Below, piece by piece: positions 3-21,079 of a DNA stretch of 30,403 bases (its first letter is position 1; every line of letters starts with the position of its first letter). The translations under genes and the position numbers were made by a program. The DNA lies in IMG/VR virus record IMGVR_UViG_3300030106_002269, positions 1 to 30,403 of that record, one strand, 5' to 3'. Source of the stretch: a virus. The notes under the pieces were generated by a model. The model was not told where the DNA came from. It did not search any database and was given only the letters and a program-made list of their open reading frames with translations.

Positions 3-2075
3 ACGCCTACTACTTCTGACATTGAAGCCTATGAGATAGCGCAGAATGTAACAGACAAAAGATTATTTGGTAGGGATGGAAGTAATAATATCTTTGAGTT
101 TGGTATTAATCCTACCTCTATATCAACGGGTGCTATTACGGCTACAGGTACAGTAACCGCTAATTCACAACTAGCTTCCTCAAATGCAGTATTAACAGGC
201 GGTTCAGTTAATAACATGGTCATAGGAGCCTCTACTGCTGCGGCTATCACTGGTACTTTGATTACTGCTAATACTAATTTTGCTGGAAATATCACTGGAA
301 ATGTGACCGGAAATGTAACGGGAAATATTACCGGAAATACAACCGGAGATTTAACGGGTAATGTCACTGCGGGTTCTGGTACAAGTACATTCAACAACCT
401 AGTTATTAACGGGACAGTAGACTTTAATACGGCTGTTCTGACTGACCTTGGAAGCCCAAGCAACTCAACAGACGCAGCCACTAAGGGGTATGTGGACACA
501 GAAATAACTAACCTAATAGGTGGCGCACCTGGAGCATTAGATACGCTTAATGAATTAGCTGCGGCCCTGAATGATGATGCTTCTTTTAACTCAACGATTA
601 CAACATCTATAGCAACTAAACTCCCTTTGGCTGGCGGTACTATGTCTGGTGCTATAGCGATGGGTAGCAACAAAGTCACAGGGCTAGACTCTGGCACTGC
701 ATCTGGTGATGCTGTCAACAAGGGTCAATTAGACACTATGCTACCTTTGGCTGGTGGGACAATGACAGGCAATATAGCTATAGGCTCGAATGTTATTACG
801 TCCAGTGCTAACCCTACAGACGATACGCATTTAGCTCGTAAGGCTTATGTTGATTCTCAATTAGGAAATGCTACAGCGGCAGCTTCTAGTGCTTCTGCTG
901 CTGCTACTTCAGCTACCAATGCAGCATCTTCGGCTACTGCGGCAGCTTCTAGCGCGACTTCAGCCGCTTCAAGTGCGACTTCTGCGGCTTCAAGCTTTGA
1001 TTCTTTTGATGATAGATACTTGGGGGCTAAGTCTTCTAATCCATCTACGGATAATGATGGAGATTCTTTATTAACTGGAGCGATCTACTGGAATACGTCA
1101 TCAAATGAGTTAAAAATTTATAATGGTTCAGCGTGGGTACAGGCTGCATTTACAAGTAGCGGTATATCAGATGTTGTTGCAGATACTACGCCACAATTAG
1201 GCGGTAGTCTTGATGTTAATGGGCAGGACATTGTTTCTGTATCAAATGGCAACATAACACTTACGCCTAATGGTACTGGTTTAGTTAGAATTGATAGCAA
1301 TGTTGATTTGCAGTCTGGAGAGATAGTTCTTAAAAACTCAGGCTCAGTATCAAATATCAAGTTTTATTGTGAATCAAGTAATGCACACTACACTCAGCTT
1401 CAATCTTCTGCACATAGCGAATACGCTGGTAATGTTACGTTAACACTTCCGGCTGCAACTGATACTTTAGTTGGAAAAGCAACAACAGATACTTTAACAA
1501 ACAAAACACTTACATCTCCTAAAATTAATGAAGATGTTGCTGTAACCTCCACTGCTACTGAAATTAATGTTTTGGATGGAATACCAGCAGGTTTGACGGC
1601 AACAGAATTAGGTTATGTTGATGGTGTAACTTCAGCTATACAAACTCAATTAGATGCTAAAGCAGCTTTAAGCAATCCTACATTGGCAGGACTTACTTTA
1701 TCTGCTGAACTAGCAGGTGCTGATAACACAGTAAGCAGGGTAAATCTAAAAGACTATGGTGAAGTAACAAATGCTTTAGGTAGCGTATCGGGCAGTACAA
1801 CCATTGATTTAACGGCTGGTAATTCTGTTACTGCGACTACTGGCGGTGCAATTACTTGGACGTTTAGTAACCCTACCGCTTCAGATGAATTGTGTGGATT
1901 TGTACTTAAATTAGTAAACGGAGGTAGTGCAACTCAGACATGGCCCGCAAGTGTAGATTGGCCTAGTGCAACTGCACCTACATTAACGACAAGCGGAACA
2001 GACGTATTGGTATTTATCACCTGTGATGGTGGTACGACTTATTACGGATTTACTGCTGGATTGGCTCTAGCATGA
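3..2075 (+). CDS. Tail fibre protein, 5' truncated by the window edge
   Basis: The reading frame is open to the first base, so the gene begins outside the window; the ATG at 216 is only an internal codon. The product is a fibrous virion protein expected to trimerise at the tail tip and contact the host surface. It starts with a tandem four-residue repeat of the form G-N-x-T (seven copies, 285-368). Next come two phage tail repeats of the LPLAGGTM(S/T)G type with DAATKGYVD and VNKGQLD linkers (about 470-850), then an Ala/Ser-rich stalk (about 874-1000). Further on are a YWNTSSNELKIYNGSAWV segment and a DTLTNKTLTSPKIN element, both common in phage fibres. The C-terminal 80 residues form a beta-rich tip ending in GFTAGLALA. 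Its stop overlaps the next start (ATGA). Fibre identity is secure; receptor and fold are unknown. Confidence 0.9.
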   Translation, partial: TPTTSDIEAYEIAQNVTDKRLFGRDGSNNIFEFGINPTSISTGAITATGTVTANSQLASSNAVLTGGSVNNMVIGASTAAAITGTLITANTNFAGNITGNVTGNVTGNITGNTTGDLTGNVTAGSGTSTFNNLVINGTVDFNTAVLTDLGSPSNSTDAATKGYVDTEITNLIGGAPGALDTLNELAAALNDDASFNSTITTSIATKLPLAGGTMSGAIAMGSNKVTGLDSGTASGDAVNKGQLDTMLPLAGGTMTGNIAIGSNVITSSANPTDDTHLARKAYVDSQLGNATAAASSASAAATSATNAASSATAAASSATSAASSATSAASSFDSFDDRYLGAKSSNPSTDNDGDSLLTGAIYWNTSSNELKIYNGSAWVQAAFTSSGISDVVADTTPQLGGSLDVNGQDIVSVSNGNITLTPNGTGLVRIDSNVDLQSGEIVLKNSGSVSNIKFYCESSNAHYTQLQSSAHSEYAGNVTLTLPAATDTLVGKATTDTLTNKTLTSPKINEDVAVTSTATEINVLDGIPAGLTATELGYVDGVTSAIQTQLDAKAALSNPTLAGLTLSAELAGADNTVSRVNLKDYGEVTNALGSVSGSTTIDLTAGNSVTATTGGAITWTFSNPTASDELCGFVLKLVNGGSATQTWPASVDWPSATAPTLTTSGTDVLVFITCDGGTTYYGFTAGLALA
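285..368 (+). repeat. Seven in-frame 12-base repeats encoding G-N-x-T
   Basis: Seven contiguous 12-base units of the pattern GGAAATNNNACN are visible. They encode GNIT, GNVT, GNVT, GNIT, GNTT, GDLT and GNVT. The third codon of each unit varies most. Copy-number change here would lengthen or shorten the fibre shaft without shifting the frame. Confidence 0.9.
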
Positions 2076-6691: not shown

Positions 6692-7848
6692 TGGCTGATC
6701 CAGTTACAGCATCAATAGCGCAAGCCGCACTAAGTGGAGTTGGCAATTTTATAAAAAATGATTTAATTGATCGTATTTTTGGATCAATTTTTGGCGGTGG
6801 AGGTTCAGACCTGCCGCCTTTAACGCCTGAACAACAAGCTGCTTTAGAGGTTGGTAATGCTTTAAATATGGCTCAAGGTGATTTGTATGGTGATGGTCAA
6901 AATGAAGGATTTTTAGAAATAGTTGGGCCAACTTTTGAAGAGGCAGTTAGAAAGGTCCAAGCCCTTGATGACTCAGAAGAAAAAACAGACTTATTAAGTG
7001 TATTAGCAAATAACGCACCTTATGATTTTACTGATTTAACGCCAGCAAGTATCACTAATTTAGAAGAAGATGATTTATCTAATCCTTTACTTGGTCCAAA
7101 TCCTTTACTTGTTGAACAAGCAGCTAATACAGGGCCAAAACCTCTTGATGAGTTAAGCCCTGAAGAAATAATGGAAGTTTATAAAGATAAAAAAATAGAT
7201 GATTTAATCAAAGATTTTCCAACAGATGAAGGTGGGCAATATCCTTTTGAGTTTGTGCGATCTATCTTGATTAACTCAGCAAATGAAGGTGATAAAAACG
7301 CTGCACAAATTTTAATGAATAGCGGTGTCCCTATAGCTGGCCCTGAAGGTGCATTTGATGGTGATGGCCCTGCTGCGGGTACTGGTGATCCTGCTGCTAG
7401 TGGTGCAGAAGGTACTGGCACACCTACTGGTGGTACACCTCAAGGTCAAACAGGTACACCTCAAGGAGAAACGAACACACCTCAAGGTAGTGCACCTATA
7501 CCTCAAGGCGGTACACCTCAAGGTGGCACTACACCCACTACACCCACTAATCCACCTGTAGATCCACCTGTAGATCCACCTGTAGATCCACCTGTAGTTC
7601 CGCCAGTTGTTCCGCCTGTAGATACAGGTGATGTAACTATAGACGATCAACCTCCAGGATTATTAAACATTCCTACTACTGTACCCCAGCAGCCTGAAAA
7701 GAAAGCAGGGATGATAATGCAAATATCTCAGTCTGCTCCTATCGTTGAGACTGTTTTTGATGACATATTGTTTGAACCAAAATTTACAAGATTAGATAAC
7801 ATTCCAGATTTTAATTTGCCTAGCGGATTATTGAGGACATTAGTATGA
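6691..7848 (+). CDS. Low-complexity Pro/Gly/Thr-rich hypothetical protein
   Basis: This 385-residue protein has three parts. The N-terminal half (1-215) is acidic and probably helical, with a Gly-rich segment (FGSIFGGGGSD) and SPEEIMEVYKDKK. A middle linker (about 216-315) is built of T-P-Q-G repeats followed by six PPV(D/V) repeats. A short conserved-looking C-terminus (AGMIMQISQSAPIV onward) closes it. The long flexible linker suggests a virion or tail-associated protein, as does its position between holin and adaptor. No family is recognised. It overlaps the adaptor gene by ATGA. Confidence 0.65.
   Translation: MADPVTASIAQAALSGVGNFIKNDLIDRIFGSIFGGGGSDLPPLTPEQQAALEVGNALNMAQGDLYGDGQNEGFLEIVGPTFEEAVRKVQALDDSEEKTDLLSVLANNAPYDFTDLTPASITNLEEDDLSNPLLGPNPLLVEQAANTGPKPLDELSPEEIMEVYKDKKIDDLIKDFPTDEGGQYPFEFVRSILINSANEGDKNAAQILMNSGVPIAGPEGAFDGDGPAAGTGDPAASGAEGTGTPTGGTPQGQTGTPQGETNTPQGSAPIPQGGTPQGGTTPTTPTNPPVDPPVDPPVDPPVVPPVVPPVDTGDVTIDDQPPGLLNIPTTVPQQPEKKAGMIMQISQSAPIVETVFDDILFEPKFTRLDNIPDFNLPSGLLRTLV
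7552..7623 (+). repeat. Six tandem 12-base repeats encoding P-P-V-(D/V)
   Basis: Units of CCACCTGTAGAT and its variants are repeated head to tail six times in frame: four near-identical copies (7552-7599), then two diverged ones with CCG codons. About 25-125 bases upstream, five dispersed copies of a CCTCAAGG core encode P-Q-G. Both tracts lie in the linker of the surrounding gene and are candidate slippage sites. Confidence 0.9.
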
Positions 7849-15428: not shown

Positions 15429-16274
15429 TTATCCGTCTTTTAATTTTAGGTTGCGTTCAGCTAGGGCATCTTTAATTTCTGTCAAACATCCCTTTCCTAA
15501 GTTTGGTATCTTTAACAGTTCGCGTTCCGATAGTTTTATTAGATCACCGATTGTTTCTATGTCATCTGCTCTAAGACTGTTCTGTGATCTAGCTGTCATT
15601 TCGAGGTCGTAAACTGGTTGCTGAAGTAATGGATTCTCTGGGGGTTTCTCGGCAGATTTTTTAGTCTTTGGTTTCTGGTTTTCTTTTAGGCTTTCGTACA
15701 TTCCTCGAAAGTAAGAACATTCATCTCTTTTTTGCTTCAAGTGTTGTTCGATAGATTGAATGTAATCCCTTTTTTTGTCTATGGTTTTTTCCCATTCTTT
15801 TTGTTCTGCAATAGCCTTTTCTGCTTTTTCTTTGGCTTCTCGCCACTTGCCGTCTATCTCTTTCAACTTCCTGATGGCTTCTTTGTTATTTGTTTGCATC
15901 TCTACTTTCTTGCTTCGCAACTCACCTAATTCGGCATTTGTTCTGTCTTCGGCTGCCTTGATCCACGCAATCTTTTCCTCTTCAATCTCCCGCTTCTTTG
16001 CCTCAAACTCATCCTTGTATTTATCATAATTTTTAATCAGATATTCATATATCTGCTTGTCTTCTAAGGTAATTGAATGGTCTTTAAAAAACGATTTCCT
16101 AAAATTTTCCAAAGAAAAACGTGTTTGTTCCATATTATCTAACTTAGTTTTGCCTTGAACGCTTGTATTTAGTTTGCTTTGCATTTTGTCCTCTTTTGAT
16201 TTCTTAATCATTAAAATAATAATCGTTAAACCTATGAATATAAGGCTGTATCCTATTATCGTGTAAGTATTCAC
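15429..16274 (-). CDS. Membrane-anchored coiled coil with RNA polymerase alpha-CTD
   Basis: The 281-residue protein has three parts. An N-terminal transmembrane helix (about 4-23, ending in a Lys stop) is followed by a long charged coiled coil (about 85-205). The C-terminal domain (221-281) is unmistakably bacterial RNA polymerase alpha-[42 protein letters not shown] and [18 protein letters not shown]229, N232 and G260 match E. coli alpha R265, N268 and G296; the positions of K298 and S299 are Gly and Cys. The listed start is a GTG overlapping the nuclease stop (GTGA). A second in-frame start at ATG 16184 has a better ribosome binding site (GAGGAC) and would drop the membrane helix. The domain binds AT-rich DNA and transcription factors in its normal context. 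Here it may redirect or titrate host transcription functions (inference). Confidence 0.85.
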
Positions 16275-16660
16275 AGTTTAAGTAGTTTGCGGTTATCTAA
16301 ATGTGCTTGTTTAATTAATGCCTTGCTTTGACCTAAGTAATGAACAGCGTGTCTATGCTTGATTAACTCCGCACACAGCCACTTGTCGTACACCTTTAAG
16401 TCCCCCAGGTATCTACCATACTTACCCTTTTCCTTAGTTTTCAGGGTGGCAAAACCTTGTTTAAGGAACTTTTCGACAAATGCCTTTGCTGCCAATCCGT
16501 ATTTCTTCTCTTCCAAATCTCTAGTGCGAGATTCGGGAGTATCAATTCCGTACAAACGAATACGCTGCCTATGAAGCCAACAATCAAAACCAAGATCAAT
16601 GTCAACATCTATCGTATCTCCATCAATTATTCTGGTAATTACACAGTGGTATTCATGCAC
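16271..16660 (-). CDS. Staphylococcal-nuclease-like (thermonuclease) protein
   Basis: This 129-residue protein is a single SNase domain (PF00565). The signatures are [18 protein letters not shown] (metal-binding Asp residues), [11 protein letters not shown] with R35, D40 and E43, and [11 protein letters not shown] with R83, corresponding to the Arg/Asp/Glu/Arg active-site set of staphylococcal nuclease. No signal peptide is seen, so it should act in the cytoplasm on DNA or RNA. It starts with GTG, eight bases inside the end of the small upstream gene and 8 bases after AGGA. It could salvage host DNA or process recombination intermediates; which is not known. Confidence 0.85.
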
Positions 16661-18890: not shown

Positions 18891-19313
18891 TTAAAGGGAT
18901 AATTCTTCTCGTAAGTTTGCCAGTAAGCCTTTCAGCTTTTCTTTCGGCATCACCCTTTTGTCATCTGGCTTATCACTCAACAACAAGTGTTTGGGCCGAT
19001 TCTCAAAGCACATCTCTTTGAATTTGCCGAGTGTCAATTTTCCGACAAACCCTGTAGCCCTCTTGCTTCCTTCCATTAGAGCCTGATTGGACAAACCTCT
19101 GCATGAGTGCCGCCAAAATTCTGACGTTTGGCTACTAACACCATCATGCACTAGCTTTGATAGTTCCAGGGAAGCCCATACCTTTACCCATAGGGTCTTG
19201 GGTATCTCTCCAGTCGGTGCGTTAGTGTTCCAAGTATTGTCGGTACTCGTCAGCTCTTGAGACATCCCGTGCTTTGCTTGTATTTGTGTTACTAACTGCT
19301 TGCTCGATTTCAT
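18891..19313 (-). CDS. Replication protein P-like (probable helicase loader)
   Basis: The start is placed at ATG 19313, eight bases after GAGAGG, giving 140 residues. The ATG five codons earlier has no such site. The segment KTLWVKVWASLELSKLVHDG ... HSCRGLSNQALMEGSKRATG, FVGKLTLGKFKEMCFENRPK resembles lambda P-type proteins: a conserved W-x-x-x-(W/L) helix, then x-G-L, then LT-x-x-(K/E)-F-x-x-(L/M)-C. It overlaps the O-like gene by 92 bases, like the O-P pair of lambdoid phages. Similarity is only at motif level. A 55-base AT-rich gap follows it, with no clear terminator. Confidence 0.42.
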   Translation of the reverse strand: MKSSKQLVTQIQAKHGMSQELTSTDNTWNTNAPTGEIPKTLWVKVWASLELSKLVHDGVSSQTSEFWRHSCRGLSNQALMEGSKRATGFVGKLTLGKFKEMCFENRPKHLLLSDKPDDKRVMPKEKLKGLLANLREELSL

Positions 19314-19569
19314 CGTCAAACCTCTCATCTCTTATGTATCTGTTTAAATGTGGGAAGGGGGCAAAGAATTGTCCCGCCTGTTGAAGCCCTCGTTTAGCCT
19401 CTGCTTGGCTCTGATAGGCTCTTATAATTTCTTCGGCATCTTCTGTGTTTTCTATCATCTTGATCCACTCCGCGTAGGCATCCTTCTTGCTACCCTTCGC
19501 CCCCAGTTTAGCGTCAGCCATAGACCAGAATGTCTCAAAGTCTTGGCTGTATAGTGTTTTTCTTTTCAA
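19222..19569 (-). CDS. Replication protein O-like (initiator-type) small protein
   Basis: This 115-residue protein starts with TTG, supported by a textbook AAAGGAGAATACA spacing. It has the pattern YSQDFETFWSMADAKLGAKG-S-KKDAYAEW, then a helix, then FAPFPHLNRYIRDERFDDEI. The F-x-x-F-W ... K-x-x-A-x-x-x-(W/Y) and F-P-h-x-x-x-(Y/W)-(L/I)-R-x-x-R-(F/W) motifs are typical of phage replication proteins in the lambda O or DnaT-like region. It is the first gene after the guide-RNA array. The terminal array repeat runs straight into its ribosome binding site, so the two are almost certainly on one transcript. Confidence 0.45.
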   Translation of the reverse strand: MKRKTLYSQDFETFWSMADAKLGAKGSKKDAYAEWIKMIENTEDAEEIIRAYQSQAEAKRGLQQAGQFFAPFPHLNRYIRDERFDDEIEQAVSNTNTSKARDVSRADEYRQYLEH

Positions 19570-19580
19570 TGTATTCTCCT

Positions 19581-19913
19581 TTAATCGTTAGACCAAGTTG
19601 GTTGTCTTGCCTTAAATGACTCGCTTTCGCTTGTTGGTTGTCTGCTATTTTTTGACTCGTTCCTTACTAATGGTTGTCTCCGCAAGAATGACTCGTTTTC
19701 TAAGTTTGGTTGTCTAAATTCCAATGACTCGCTAGGGTAGCTTGGTTGTCTTATTTCGTATGACTCGTTACAATCCGATGGTTGTCTTCTTTCAGTTGAC
19801 TCATTACAATTGAATGGTTGTCTCCCGCCCTCTGACTCGTTTCTTGGTCATGGTTGTCTCCACACGAATGACTCGTTTTTGTATTTTGGTTGTCTAGTGA
19901 GCAATGACCCAAT
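19581..19913 (-). repeat. TIGR array: alternating 9-base repeats with 9-base spacers
   Basis: Read on the minus strand, the unit is AACGAGTCA-N9-AGACAACCA-N9, period exactly 36. There are nine identical copies of AGACAACCA. There are ten phase-keeping copies of the second repeat: five AACGAGTCA, two AGCGAGTCA, one AATGAGTCA, and degenerate ends ATTGGGTCA (19905) and AACGATTAA (19581). The 18 spacers are all 9 bases and different, e.g. TTGCTCACT, AAATACAAA, TTCGTGTGG, TGACCAAGA, GAGGGCGGG. Repeat cores GTC and GAC can pair. The dual-repeat, dual-spacer 36-base unit next to a Nop-domain protein is the reported plan of TIGR arrays, processed to 36-nt guide RNAs. The array begins three bases after the tas stop and ends at the ribosome binding site of the next gene. 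Transcription strand is inferred from the operon. Confidence 0.92.
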
Positions 19914-19916
19914 TAC

Positions 19917-20783
19917 TTAGGCAGCTTTGCCATGCACCTTGCCTAGCTTTGCCTCGCTATAGGTTGGAGCAACAGGCAAGCCCTCTATCCTGCGCCACTC
20001 GTTATAGAGGTCTATCAGGAATATCTTAATCATGTAACGCACCGCCATGTTGTGTCTGTGTCCTTTAGACTTCTCTTTATGAGCGTCCATGTTCTCAATA
20101 CGGTGCTTGTAATCGTCATAAACTTGGCGGTACTTACACTTATCAGCAGGTTGTTTAATAAAACTACTACCCAAAACACCTACTAATTTGGTCTTCAAAA
20201 ACGGATTAAAAGTAATACCCTTCTTGGTTTTAATCTCTCCATCAGCATCCGTATATTGTGAATCCTCTAGATGTTCCTTCCTTCTGCTACGCCCCTGACC
20301 ATCACTTGCTACATCTAGCCCTGCATACTTGTGTAGACTAGAAGGATACTCGGCTTGAGTAATATCAATCTCACTAATAATTACCCCTGCCATCGCAGGG
20401 CCGACACCCCTAATCCCTGCAAGAAATTCATTATAAATCGGGTAGTCCTTGAGGATGTTCCCCAGTCTACGGAAGTGAGAGTTCTCTTGCTGCTCTAGCT
20501 CCAGGTAGTTATCCACCAAGCATAGCTCTGTGTAGTCGCTAATAACCTCGTCACCTTCAAATGTGGCTTGTCTTGGGAATGTGGCTACACCCTCTGTTAA
20601 CAGCTTGTGAGACCTTCTGAGGTTCTCTAGGAGCTTCTGCCCATCCTTATCAATGGTATCCTCCTTCTCACTAGGAGCTTGCCCTAGCTTGGCTTTGAAG
20701 TTGCCTACCAGTCGGTTGCCAGTTTGGATACGATTCTTTTGAATGTCATATGCTCCACGCACGATTGTTTTTAAATTGCTCAT
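19917..20783 (-). CDS. tasA: TasA-like Nop-domain guide-RNA-binding protein
   Basis: This 288-residue protein resembles the C-terminal part of IS110 transposases (Transposase_20) and the Nop domain of box C/D RNPs. A helical N-terminal region (1-115) contains a Tyr/Glu-rich coiled segment (84-106). A helix-hairpin-helix-like FLAGIRGVGPAMAGVIISEI (120-139) follows, then LHKYAGLDV (150-158), FNPFLKTKLVGVLGSSFIK (192-210) and HRHNMAVRYMIKIFLIDLY (242-260) plus NEWRR. The DEDD RuvC domain of IS110 and TasR is absent, and no HNH motif is seen, so it belongs with nuclease-less TasA. It would bind guide RNAs from the adjacent array and direct sequence-specific DNA binding rather than cutting. Its ATG overlaps the preceding stop. 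Annotation pipelines would probably call it an IS110 transposase. Confidence 0.85.
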   Translation of the reverse strand: MSNLKTIVRGAYDIQKNRIQTGNRLVGNFKAKLGQAPSEKEDTIDKDGQKLLENLRRSHKLLTEGVATFPRQATFEGDEVISDYTELCLVDNYLELEQQENSHFRRLGNILKDYPIYNEFLAGIRGVGPAMAGVIISEIDITQAEYPSSLHKYAGLDVASDGQGRSRRKEHLEDSQYTDADGEIKTKKGITFNPFLKTKLVGVLGSSFIKQPADKCKYRQVYDDYKHRIENMDAHKEKSKGHRHNMAVRYMIKIFLIDLYNEWRRIEGLPVAPTYSEAKLGKVHGKAA

Positions 20784-21079
20784 TTGCTTTCCCCCTTCTT
20801 AGCTTTTGGCTTTAACTGGGGGTCACTGTGTAGTAATAAATCAGCGTAATACCCACTATCTTTGGGCTTATCAAAGCCCATCAGGTAGGTAATTGCACAC
20901 AATAAATCCTGCAATGCGTCAAGATGTTCGACTCTTGGACCGTGAAATATTTCTTGTCCAATATCACTTAAATAATCATTGAGCATATTGACTTGACGCA
21001 ATATCATTTCTGGGCGTTGACGCTGCACGTTGTGTTCAATCAAAAGTTTGTGCGTATTTTCTATATCTCTTATGTTCAT
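20780..21079 (-). CDS. 99-residue protein coupled to tasA
   Basis: The ATG at 21079 follows AAGGAG by six bases. The protein appears all-helical: an N-terminal NIRDIENTHKLLIEHNVQRQ stretch, a central MLNDYLSDIGQEIF, a second helix DALQDLLCAITYLMGF, and a basic tail (KPKAKKGESK). I recognise no family. Its stop overlaps the tasA start (ATGA), so it is translationally coupled to tasA and could be a partner or simply a neighbour. Confidence 0.65.
   Translation of the reverse strand: MNIRDIENTHKLLIEHNVQRQRPEMILRQVNMLNDYLSDIGQEIFHGPRVEHLDALQDLLCAITYLMGFDKPKDSGYYADLLLHSDPQLKPKAKKGESK

What the first reader, a model, noticed from the sequence alone, without database searches (positions are those of the whole stretch)
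19581..20783. A TIGR-Tas RNA-guided system inside a phage early operon
The sequence shows two alternating, different 9-base repeats and 9-base spacers with an exact 36-base period over 333 bases, directly next to a Nop/Transposase_20-like protein. In published TIGR-Tas systems a tandem interspaced guide RNA array is processed to 36-nt guides with two spacers each and bound by a Nop-domain Tas protein. The match in unit length, dual repeats, dual spacers and partner gene is complete. Routine annotation would report only an IS110 transposase and would miss the array because repeats and spacers are too short for CRISPR finders.
Basis: partly seen in the sequence, partly recalled or inferred. Interest (0 to 1): 0.97.

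Follow-up and report, generated by a model that had tools for sequence, protein, structure and literature searches.

The report
TIGR-TasA guide-RNA locus in marine phage
An uncultured, probably marine phage carries a TIGR-TasA locus, a recently described RNA-guided DNA-binding system with nine two-part guides; the system is already known, but about 390 guides from its relatives give comparative evidence that a nuclease-free version reads the two strands of one continuous DNA target.

Summary
On the minus strand, a 288-aa gene (20783-19917) is followed directly by a 333-base array (19913-19581) of nine 36-base units: edge repeat AACGAGTCA, 9-nt spacer A, loop repeat AGACAACCA, 9-nt spacer B. 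The protein passes NCBIfam's curated TIGR-Tas model, and its predicted fold matches solved TasH and TasR best. It has no nuclease domain, so it is a TasA: a new member of a system published in 2025, not a new kind.

Thirty-nine IMG/VR relatives (54-95% identical) carry such arrays, with conserved repeats and almost entirely different spacers. New evidence from them: (1) box C/D pairs covary between successive edge repeats, not within one, marking out the 36-nt guide and its RNA strand; (2) purine content of spacers A and B is anticorrelated across the loop (r = -0.235, p = 5e-5) but not across the edge (r = 0.01), as expected if a guide matches opposite strands of one contiguous DNA; (3) tas plus array moves between unrelated phages; (4) guides do not match the phage's own genome. 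Natural targets remain unproven: one shared guide's variant matches a T4-type DNA polymerase gene, only suggestive.

The parts
19917..20783 (-). tasA: 288-aa Nop-domain TIGR-associated protein without a nuclease domain; ATG overlaps the stop of the upstream ORF
   Evidence: NF052498 117.8 bits, above cut-off; TasR 4e-12 and TasH 2.6e-7 by sequence; AlphaFold2 model pLDDT 75.8, best folds TasH/TasR; all-helical N-terminus, no RuvC or HNH hit
19581..19913 (-). [quoted passage not shown]
   Evidence: same arrays beside all 39 IMG/VR relatives
19905..19913 (-). leading edge repeat, degraded at its 5' end (ATTGGGTCA): keeps the 3' half that enters tigRNA 1
19887..19895 (-). first of nine identical loop repeats AGACAACCA (others start at 19851, 19815, 19779, 19743, 19707, 19671, 19635, 19599)
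19590..19616 (-). spacers and loop of tigRNA 9 (TTTAAGGCA / ACTTGGTCT): the one guide shared with other arrays (identical in L004-L007, one base different in L002)
19581..19589 (-). trailing edge repeat, degraded at its 3' end (AACGATTAA): keeps the 5' half needed to close tigRNA 9; runs into the ribosome-binding site of the next gene
20780..21079 (-). 99-aa ORF upstream, overlapping the tasA start; found near tas only in L002, not in the other relatives
19222..19569 (-). 115-aa ORF right after the array (weak similarity to replication-initiation proteins); found only in L002 among relatives

Best explanation
This is a TIGR-TasA locus. The array is transcribed with tasA on the minus strand and cut in the middle of each edge repeat into nine 36-nt tigRNAs. 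Each tigRNA binds a TasA dimer through two box C/D-like ends. Spacer A pairs with one strand and spacer B with the other strand of one contiguous 18-bp DNA target (read A then reverse complement of B, gap 0 to 2). Without a nuclease, TasA most likely binds and bends the target and blocks its transcription or replication. The hypervariable guides, lack of self-match and exchange between phages fit use against other mobile elements such as competing phages. Shown here by sequence: protein family and fold, array anatomy, edge-to-edge box pairing, opposite-strand signature of the guides, cassette transfer, no self-target. Inferred from published TasR/TasH work: transcription, cutting, DNA binding, bending. 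Inferred with low certainty: blocking as the effect, competing phages as targets.
For: Family. Array anatomy; rules from PMC12045711. Box C/D pairing: loop 2-7 is G-C, edge 2-7 is A-U, G-U or G-C, edge 3-6 is C-G, U-G or U-A. The pairing runs from the left edge (base 7) to the next edge (base 2): in arrays with mixed edges Fisher p = 4e-7 across, p = 0.59 within one edge, within-locus permutation p = 2e-4; U-G (55) outnumbers C-A (11), which fixes the RNA strand as the tas strand. Opposite-strand signature: purine content of A and B, r = -0.235, p = 5e-5, n = 349; deduplicated r = -0.238, p = 1e-4; spacers on either side of an edge r = 0.01; natural 18-mers give -0.148 under the same geometry; same-strand geometries gain nothing. 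Spacers turn over while repeats stay. No self-match. Cassette moves between unrelated phages.
Against: No RNA or binding data for this locus; processing and targeting are taken from TasR/TasH (the paper also found 36-nt RNA bound to a TasA). No natural target was found for any of this window's own guides: an exact-match scan of IMG/VR for three of the nine gave nothing convincing. In the published test TasR did not stop phage or conjugation in E. coli. Unlike most published arrays there is no terminator after this one.
Confidence: 0.75

Rival explanations
1. Same RNA-guided DNA binder, but used as a programmable regulator (repressor, replication or integration aid) of the phage's own or its host's DNA rather than against competitors.
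For: TasA lacks a nuclease; the cassette sits among replication and recombination genes of the window's phage and of the L006 group; the discovery paper proposes regulation or integrase assistance.
Against: Own guides match the own genome no better than shuffled pairs (3-5 mismatches at best), and no enrichment in 494 kb of related loci. Spacers are almost fully replaced between phages with 88-95% identical TasA, unlike a fixed regulatory programme. Host targets could not be tested because the host is unknown.
Confidence: 0.2
2. TasA serves as a targeting subunit for a separate nuclease or other effector encoded by phage or host, so targets are in the end cut.
For: A staphylococcal-nuclease-like gene (window 16271-16660) recurs 1-4 kb from tas in 11 loci of phages that otherwise share few genes with the window.
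Against: That gene is only 44-60% identical and not adjacent, whereas tas is 86-90% identical in most of these loci, so they did not travel together; no adjacent gene is conserved.
Confidence: 0.08
3. An IS110-type transposase remnant beside unrelated short tandem repeats, or a structural DNA element.
For: Weak Transposase_20 hit (21.6 bits, cut-off 21.3) and IS110 hit far below its cut-off (26 against 140).
Against: TIGR-Tas model passed; fold ranks Tas before IS110; no DEDD domain hit; repeats and box pairs conserved beside every relative with variable spacers.
Confidence: 0.01

Closest known systems
TIGR-TasA dual-repeat systems (e.g. Flavonifractor plautii FpTIGR; Faure et al. 2025, PMC12045711)
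   Same: Solo Nop-domain protein; dual 9-nt repeats, dual 9-nt spacers, 36-nt period; array next to tas; degraded edge repeats at both ends; box C/D pairing.
   Different: Box D reads AA/AG instead of the UG reported for TasR arrays; no terminator after this array, which lies inside an operon. RNA processing and DNA binding not tested here.
TIGR-TasH of Salicola phage CGphi29
   Same: Phage-borne, homologous Nop domain (28% identity), same array logic.
   Different: TasH has an N-terminal HNH nuclease and 16 nt of spacer per guide; the window protein has no nuclease domain.
TIGR-TasR (PDB 9mty)
   Same: Nop domain, C-terminal HxH...R...K..FL motif, edge/loop repeats with CCA-type box C.
   Different: TasR carries RuvC and cuts DNA.
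IS110/IS621 bridge-RNA transposases
   Same: Related C-terminal RNA-binding (Transposase_20/Nop) domain.
   Different: No DEDD domain hit; an array is present instead of transposon ends and a bridge RNA (the latter were not searched for in detail).
Box C/D snoRNPs (Nop5)
   Same: Nop domain and box C/D-like guide ends (literature).
   Different: Published snoRNPs need L7Ae and fibrillarin and act on RNA; neither was found among the window genes that were searched.

Membership tests
TIGR-Tas | Nop-domain Tas protein of the TIGR-Tas family | tested here: met
   NF052498 117.8 bits over cut-off 100; 9mty 4e-12, TasH 2.6e-7; ten best PDB folds are TasH/TasR
TIGR-Tas | Adjacent array of two alternating 8-12-nt repeats with about 9-nt spacers, 36-nt period | tested here: met
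   nine exact 9/9/9/9 units
TIGR-Tas | Edge repeats truncated at both array ends | tested here: met
   ATTGGGTCA and AACGATTAA
TIGR-Tas | Box C/D pairs, covarying, formed between neighbouring edge repeats | tested here: met
TIGR-Tas | Variable spacers with conserved repeats in relatives | tested here: met
TIGR-Tas | Terminator after the array (typical, not universal) | tested here: not met
   array runs into the ribosome-binding site of the next gene; hairpins present after arrays in L003, L006, L018
TIGR-Tas | Processing to 36-nt tigRNA bound by Tas | not testable with these tools
   needs small-RNA sequencing; edge-to-edge covariation agrees
TIGR-Tas | Spacers A and B pair with opposite strands of one DNA target | tested here: inconclusive
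   statistical signature present; no confirmed target
TasA subtype | Nop domain alone, no RuvC or HNH | tested here: met
IS110 transposase | N-terminal DEDD domain and full-length IS110 match | tested here: not met
   26 bits against cut-off 140, no DEDD family hit
CRISPR-Cas | cas genes and repeats of about 25-36 nt | tested here: not met
   repeats are 9 nt; no PADLOC hit for tas or the three neighbouring ORFs scanned

The most novel reading that the evidence does not exclude
A nuclease-free, guide-swapping TasA cassette circulates among unrelated marine phages as an inter-phage weapon: its guides match contiguous dsDNA in essential genes of competitors (a candidate is a conserved site in the family-B DNA polymerase gene of T4-superfamily phages) and silence them by binding.
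Probability: 0.3. Interest if true: 0.85.

Novelty: new member of a known kind. Interest (0 to 1): 0.5.

Why it matters
What TIGR systems are for, and above all what the common nuclease-free TasA form does, is stated to be open in the discovery paper. This locus and its relatives give about 390 distinct natural guides from one TasA family. They show statistically that TasA guides carry the opposite-strand, contiguous-target signature that the paper demonstrated for TasR and TasH in vitro, that the pairing unit is the 36-nt guide, and that the cassette moves between unrelated phages while its guides turn over. That points to DNA targets outside the carrier phage and makes the question directly testable with a defined guide set.

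Tried and rejected
Self-targeting: scan of 349 guides against 494 kb of own and related loci, all strand orders and gaps -4 to 8, against shuffled pairs: no excess; own guides against own window: none. IMG/VR exact-match scans with gap 0-3: guide 9 and its L002 variant gave 9 hits, 7 of them at gap 0 in one site of a T4-superfamily DNA polymerase gene, all with the L002 variant and none with the window's own; 22 of 87 related loci carry it, but no other guide was enriched in that 1.1 Mb. Other guides gave scattered or no hits. So the polymerase match is a lead only: one event, several other guide families scanned without a comparable one, and the window's own guide has one mismatch. Codon-phase test of variant guide families: inconclusive; variant families themselves exceed chance (41 pairs with at most 3 differences against 0-2). 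Gap estimate from codon models: weak, gaps -1 to 2 all similar. Rfam: no match. Conserved partner gene next to tas: none. IS110 reading: rejected.

Full report
OBSERVATION. The window is bases 1-30403 of a 33,467-base virus record. On the minus strand, ORF 20783-19917 (288 aa) is followed directly by a strictly periodic array, 19913-19581: nine units of edge repeat (AACGAGTCA; variants AGCGAGTCA twice, AATGAGTCA once), 9-nt spacer A, invariant loop repeat AGACAACCA, 9-nt spacer B. The first edge has lost its 5' half and the last its 3' half, so exactly the halves that would enter the first and last processed guide remain. The rest of the 33-kb record has no other array of this type.

PROTEIN. 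NCBIfam's curated TIGR-Tas model is passed (117.8 bits, cut-off 100); the IS110 model is not (26 against 140). phmmer against the PDB gives TasR 9mty at 4e-12 and TasH at 2.6e-7, with a shared C-terminal HxH...R...K..FL motif. An AlphaFold2 model from 25 aligned relatives (pLDDT 75.8, pTM 0.72) has TasH and TasR as its ten best PDB matches (E 4.5e-8 to 1.3e-4, probability 1.00); IS621 follows at E about 1e-2. The N-terminus is helical and no RuvC or HNH family is found, so it is a TasA. NCBIfam's product name ('endonuclease') and PHROG 4285's ('transposase') both misdescribe it.

RELATIVES. IMG/VR gave 39 relatives at 54-95% identity; each has such an array next to tas. Fourteen more distant relatives (27-65%) in bacterial and archaeal MAG contigs mostly have 36-base arrays with similar repeats. 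Among isolated phages only Salicola phage CGphi29 and Microcystis phage Mvi-JY20 match. The 393 distinct units have conserved repeats and almost wholly different spacers, even between arrays whose TasA is 88-95% identical. Units are reshuffled, inserted and lost without clear polarity. One guide (unit 9 of the window) is shared with L004-L007, which belong to a phage group that shares almost no other genes with the window's phage.

PAIRING WITHIN THE GUIDE. The published structure has box C/D base pairs which, for the edge repeat, form between two successive edges of a processed tigRNA. The loop shows G2-C7; the edges show A2-U7, G2-U7 and G2-C7, and C3-G6, U3-G6 and U3-A6. Using arrays with mixed edges, I tested which copies pair. 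When base 7 of the left edge is C, base 2 of the next edge is G in 16 of 25 units; when it is U, in 53 of 333 (Fisher 4e-7). Within the same edge there is no association (p = 0.59), and a within-locus permutation gives p = 2e-4. Wobble U-G (55) far outnumbers C-A (11), so the RNA is read from the tas strand. This is comparative support for mid-edge processing, independent of RNA sequencing.

OPPOSITE-STRAND SIGNATURE. In natural DNA, neighbouring 9-mers on one strand share purine bias, so if A and B pair with opposite strands of one site their purine contents should be anticorrelated. They are: r = -0.235 (n = 349, p = 5e-5), and r = -0.238 (p = 1e-4) for 293 guides without near-duplicates. 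Spacers on either side of an edge repeat, which belong to different guides, give r = 0.01. Natural 18-mers read in this geometry give -0.148. Codon and pairwise models gain only under opposite-strand geometries; same-strand geometries gain nothing. The exact gap is not resolved. Guides are also richer in purines than natural DNA (36% against 12% with at least 12 of 18), which is unexplained.

TARGETS. Neither the window's guides nor the family's match their own or related phages beyond chance. Exact scans of IMG/VR gave one notable case: the L002 variant of guide 9 (TTGAAGGCA + AGACCAAGT, gap 0) lies in a conserved site of a family-B DNA polymerase gene of T4-superfamily phages in 7 contigs, and in 22 of 87 related loci. 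The closest isolates are very large myophages, at most 50% identical. No other guide was enriched there, and the more widespread guide variant, including the window's, has one mismatch. I treat this as a lead, not a result.

CONTEXT. The minus-strand block holds SSB, NinB- and NinG-like recombination genes, a staphylococcal-nuclease-like protein and a replication-initiator-like protein; the plus strand holds virion, lysis, terminase and portal genes. So 'early operon' is a fair inference, though no expression data exist. The L003-L020 group has a family-A polymerase and helicase replication module and shares 0-3 of about 60 non-tas ORFs with the window, while TasA is 86-90% identical. DNA similarity to most of these begins at or within about 20 bases of the tas start codon and ends in the array. 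The cassette tas plus array therefore moves between unrelated phages. No partner gene is conserved beside it. That the habitat is marine is an inference from the contig collections of the relatives, not a test.

MECHANISM. Shown by sequence: family, anatomy, pairing, opposite-strand signature, mobility, no self-target. Taken from TasR/TasH work (PMC12045711): transcription, cutting of the array, dimeric binding of two strands, DNA bending. My inference: with no nuclease, TasA blocks transcription or replication of foreign DNA. Rivals are regulation of own or host DNA, and recruitment of a separate nuclease.

VERDICT. TIGR-TasA, a new member of a known kind. The value lies in the comparative guide set, which makes the open question of what TasA targets testable.

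Noticed in passing
window 15429-16274 (-): 281-aa protein with an RNA polymerase alpha C-terminal domain (Pfam 1.1e-20) behind a hydrophobic segment and a coiled-coil-like N-terminus; unusual for a phage, possibly acts on host transcription.
   Followed up: partly
L003, L004, L006, L013, L016, L018, L019 and others; window 16271-16660: A staphylococcal-nuclease-like gene recurs 1-4 kb from tas in phages that otherwise share few genes with the window.
   Followed up: partly
349 guides of all loci: Both spacers are purine-rich (5.4 and 5.3 of 9) and the last base of each spacer is rarely C (5-6%).
   Followed up: no
L045 and L051: TasA relatives with TIGR-type arrays in contigs binned as Micrarchaeum and Thermoplasmatota archaea.
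   Followed up: no
window 285-367 and 7432-7623 (+): Short tandem repeats (periods 9, 12, 21 and 36 bases) inside plus-strand ORFs of the virion gene block.
   Followed up: no
PHROG 4285; NCBIfam NF052498: PHROG 4285 is labelled transposase and NF052498 endonuclease, although this nuclease-free TasA protein matches both; the names may mislead annotators.
   Followed up: no
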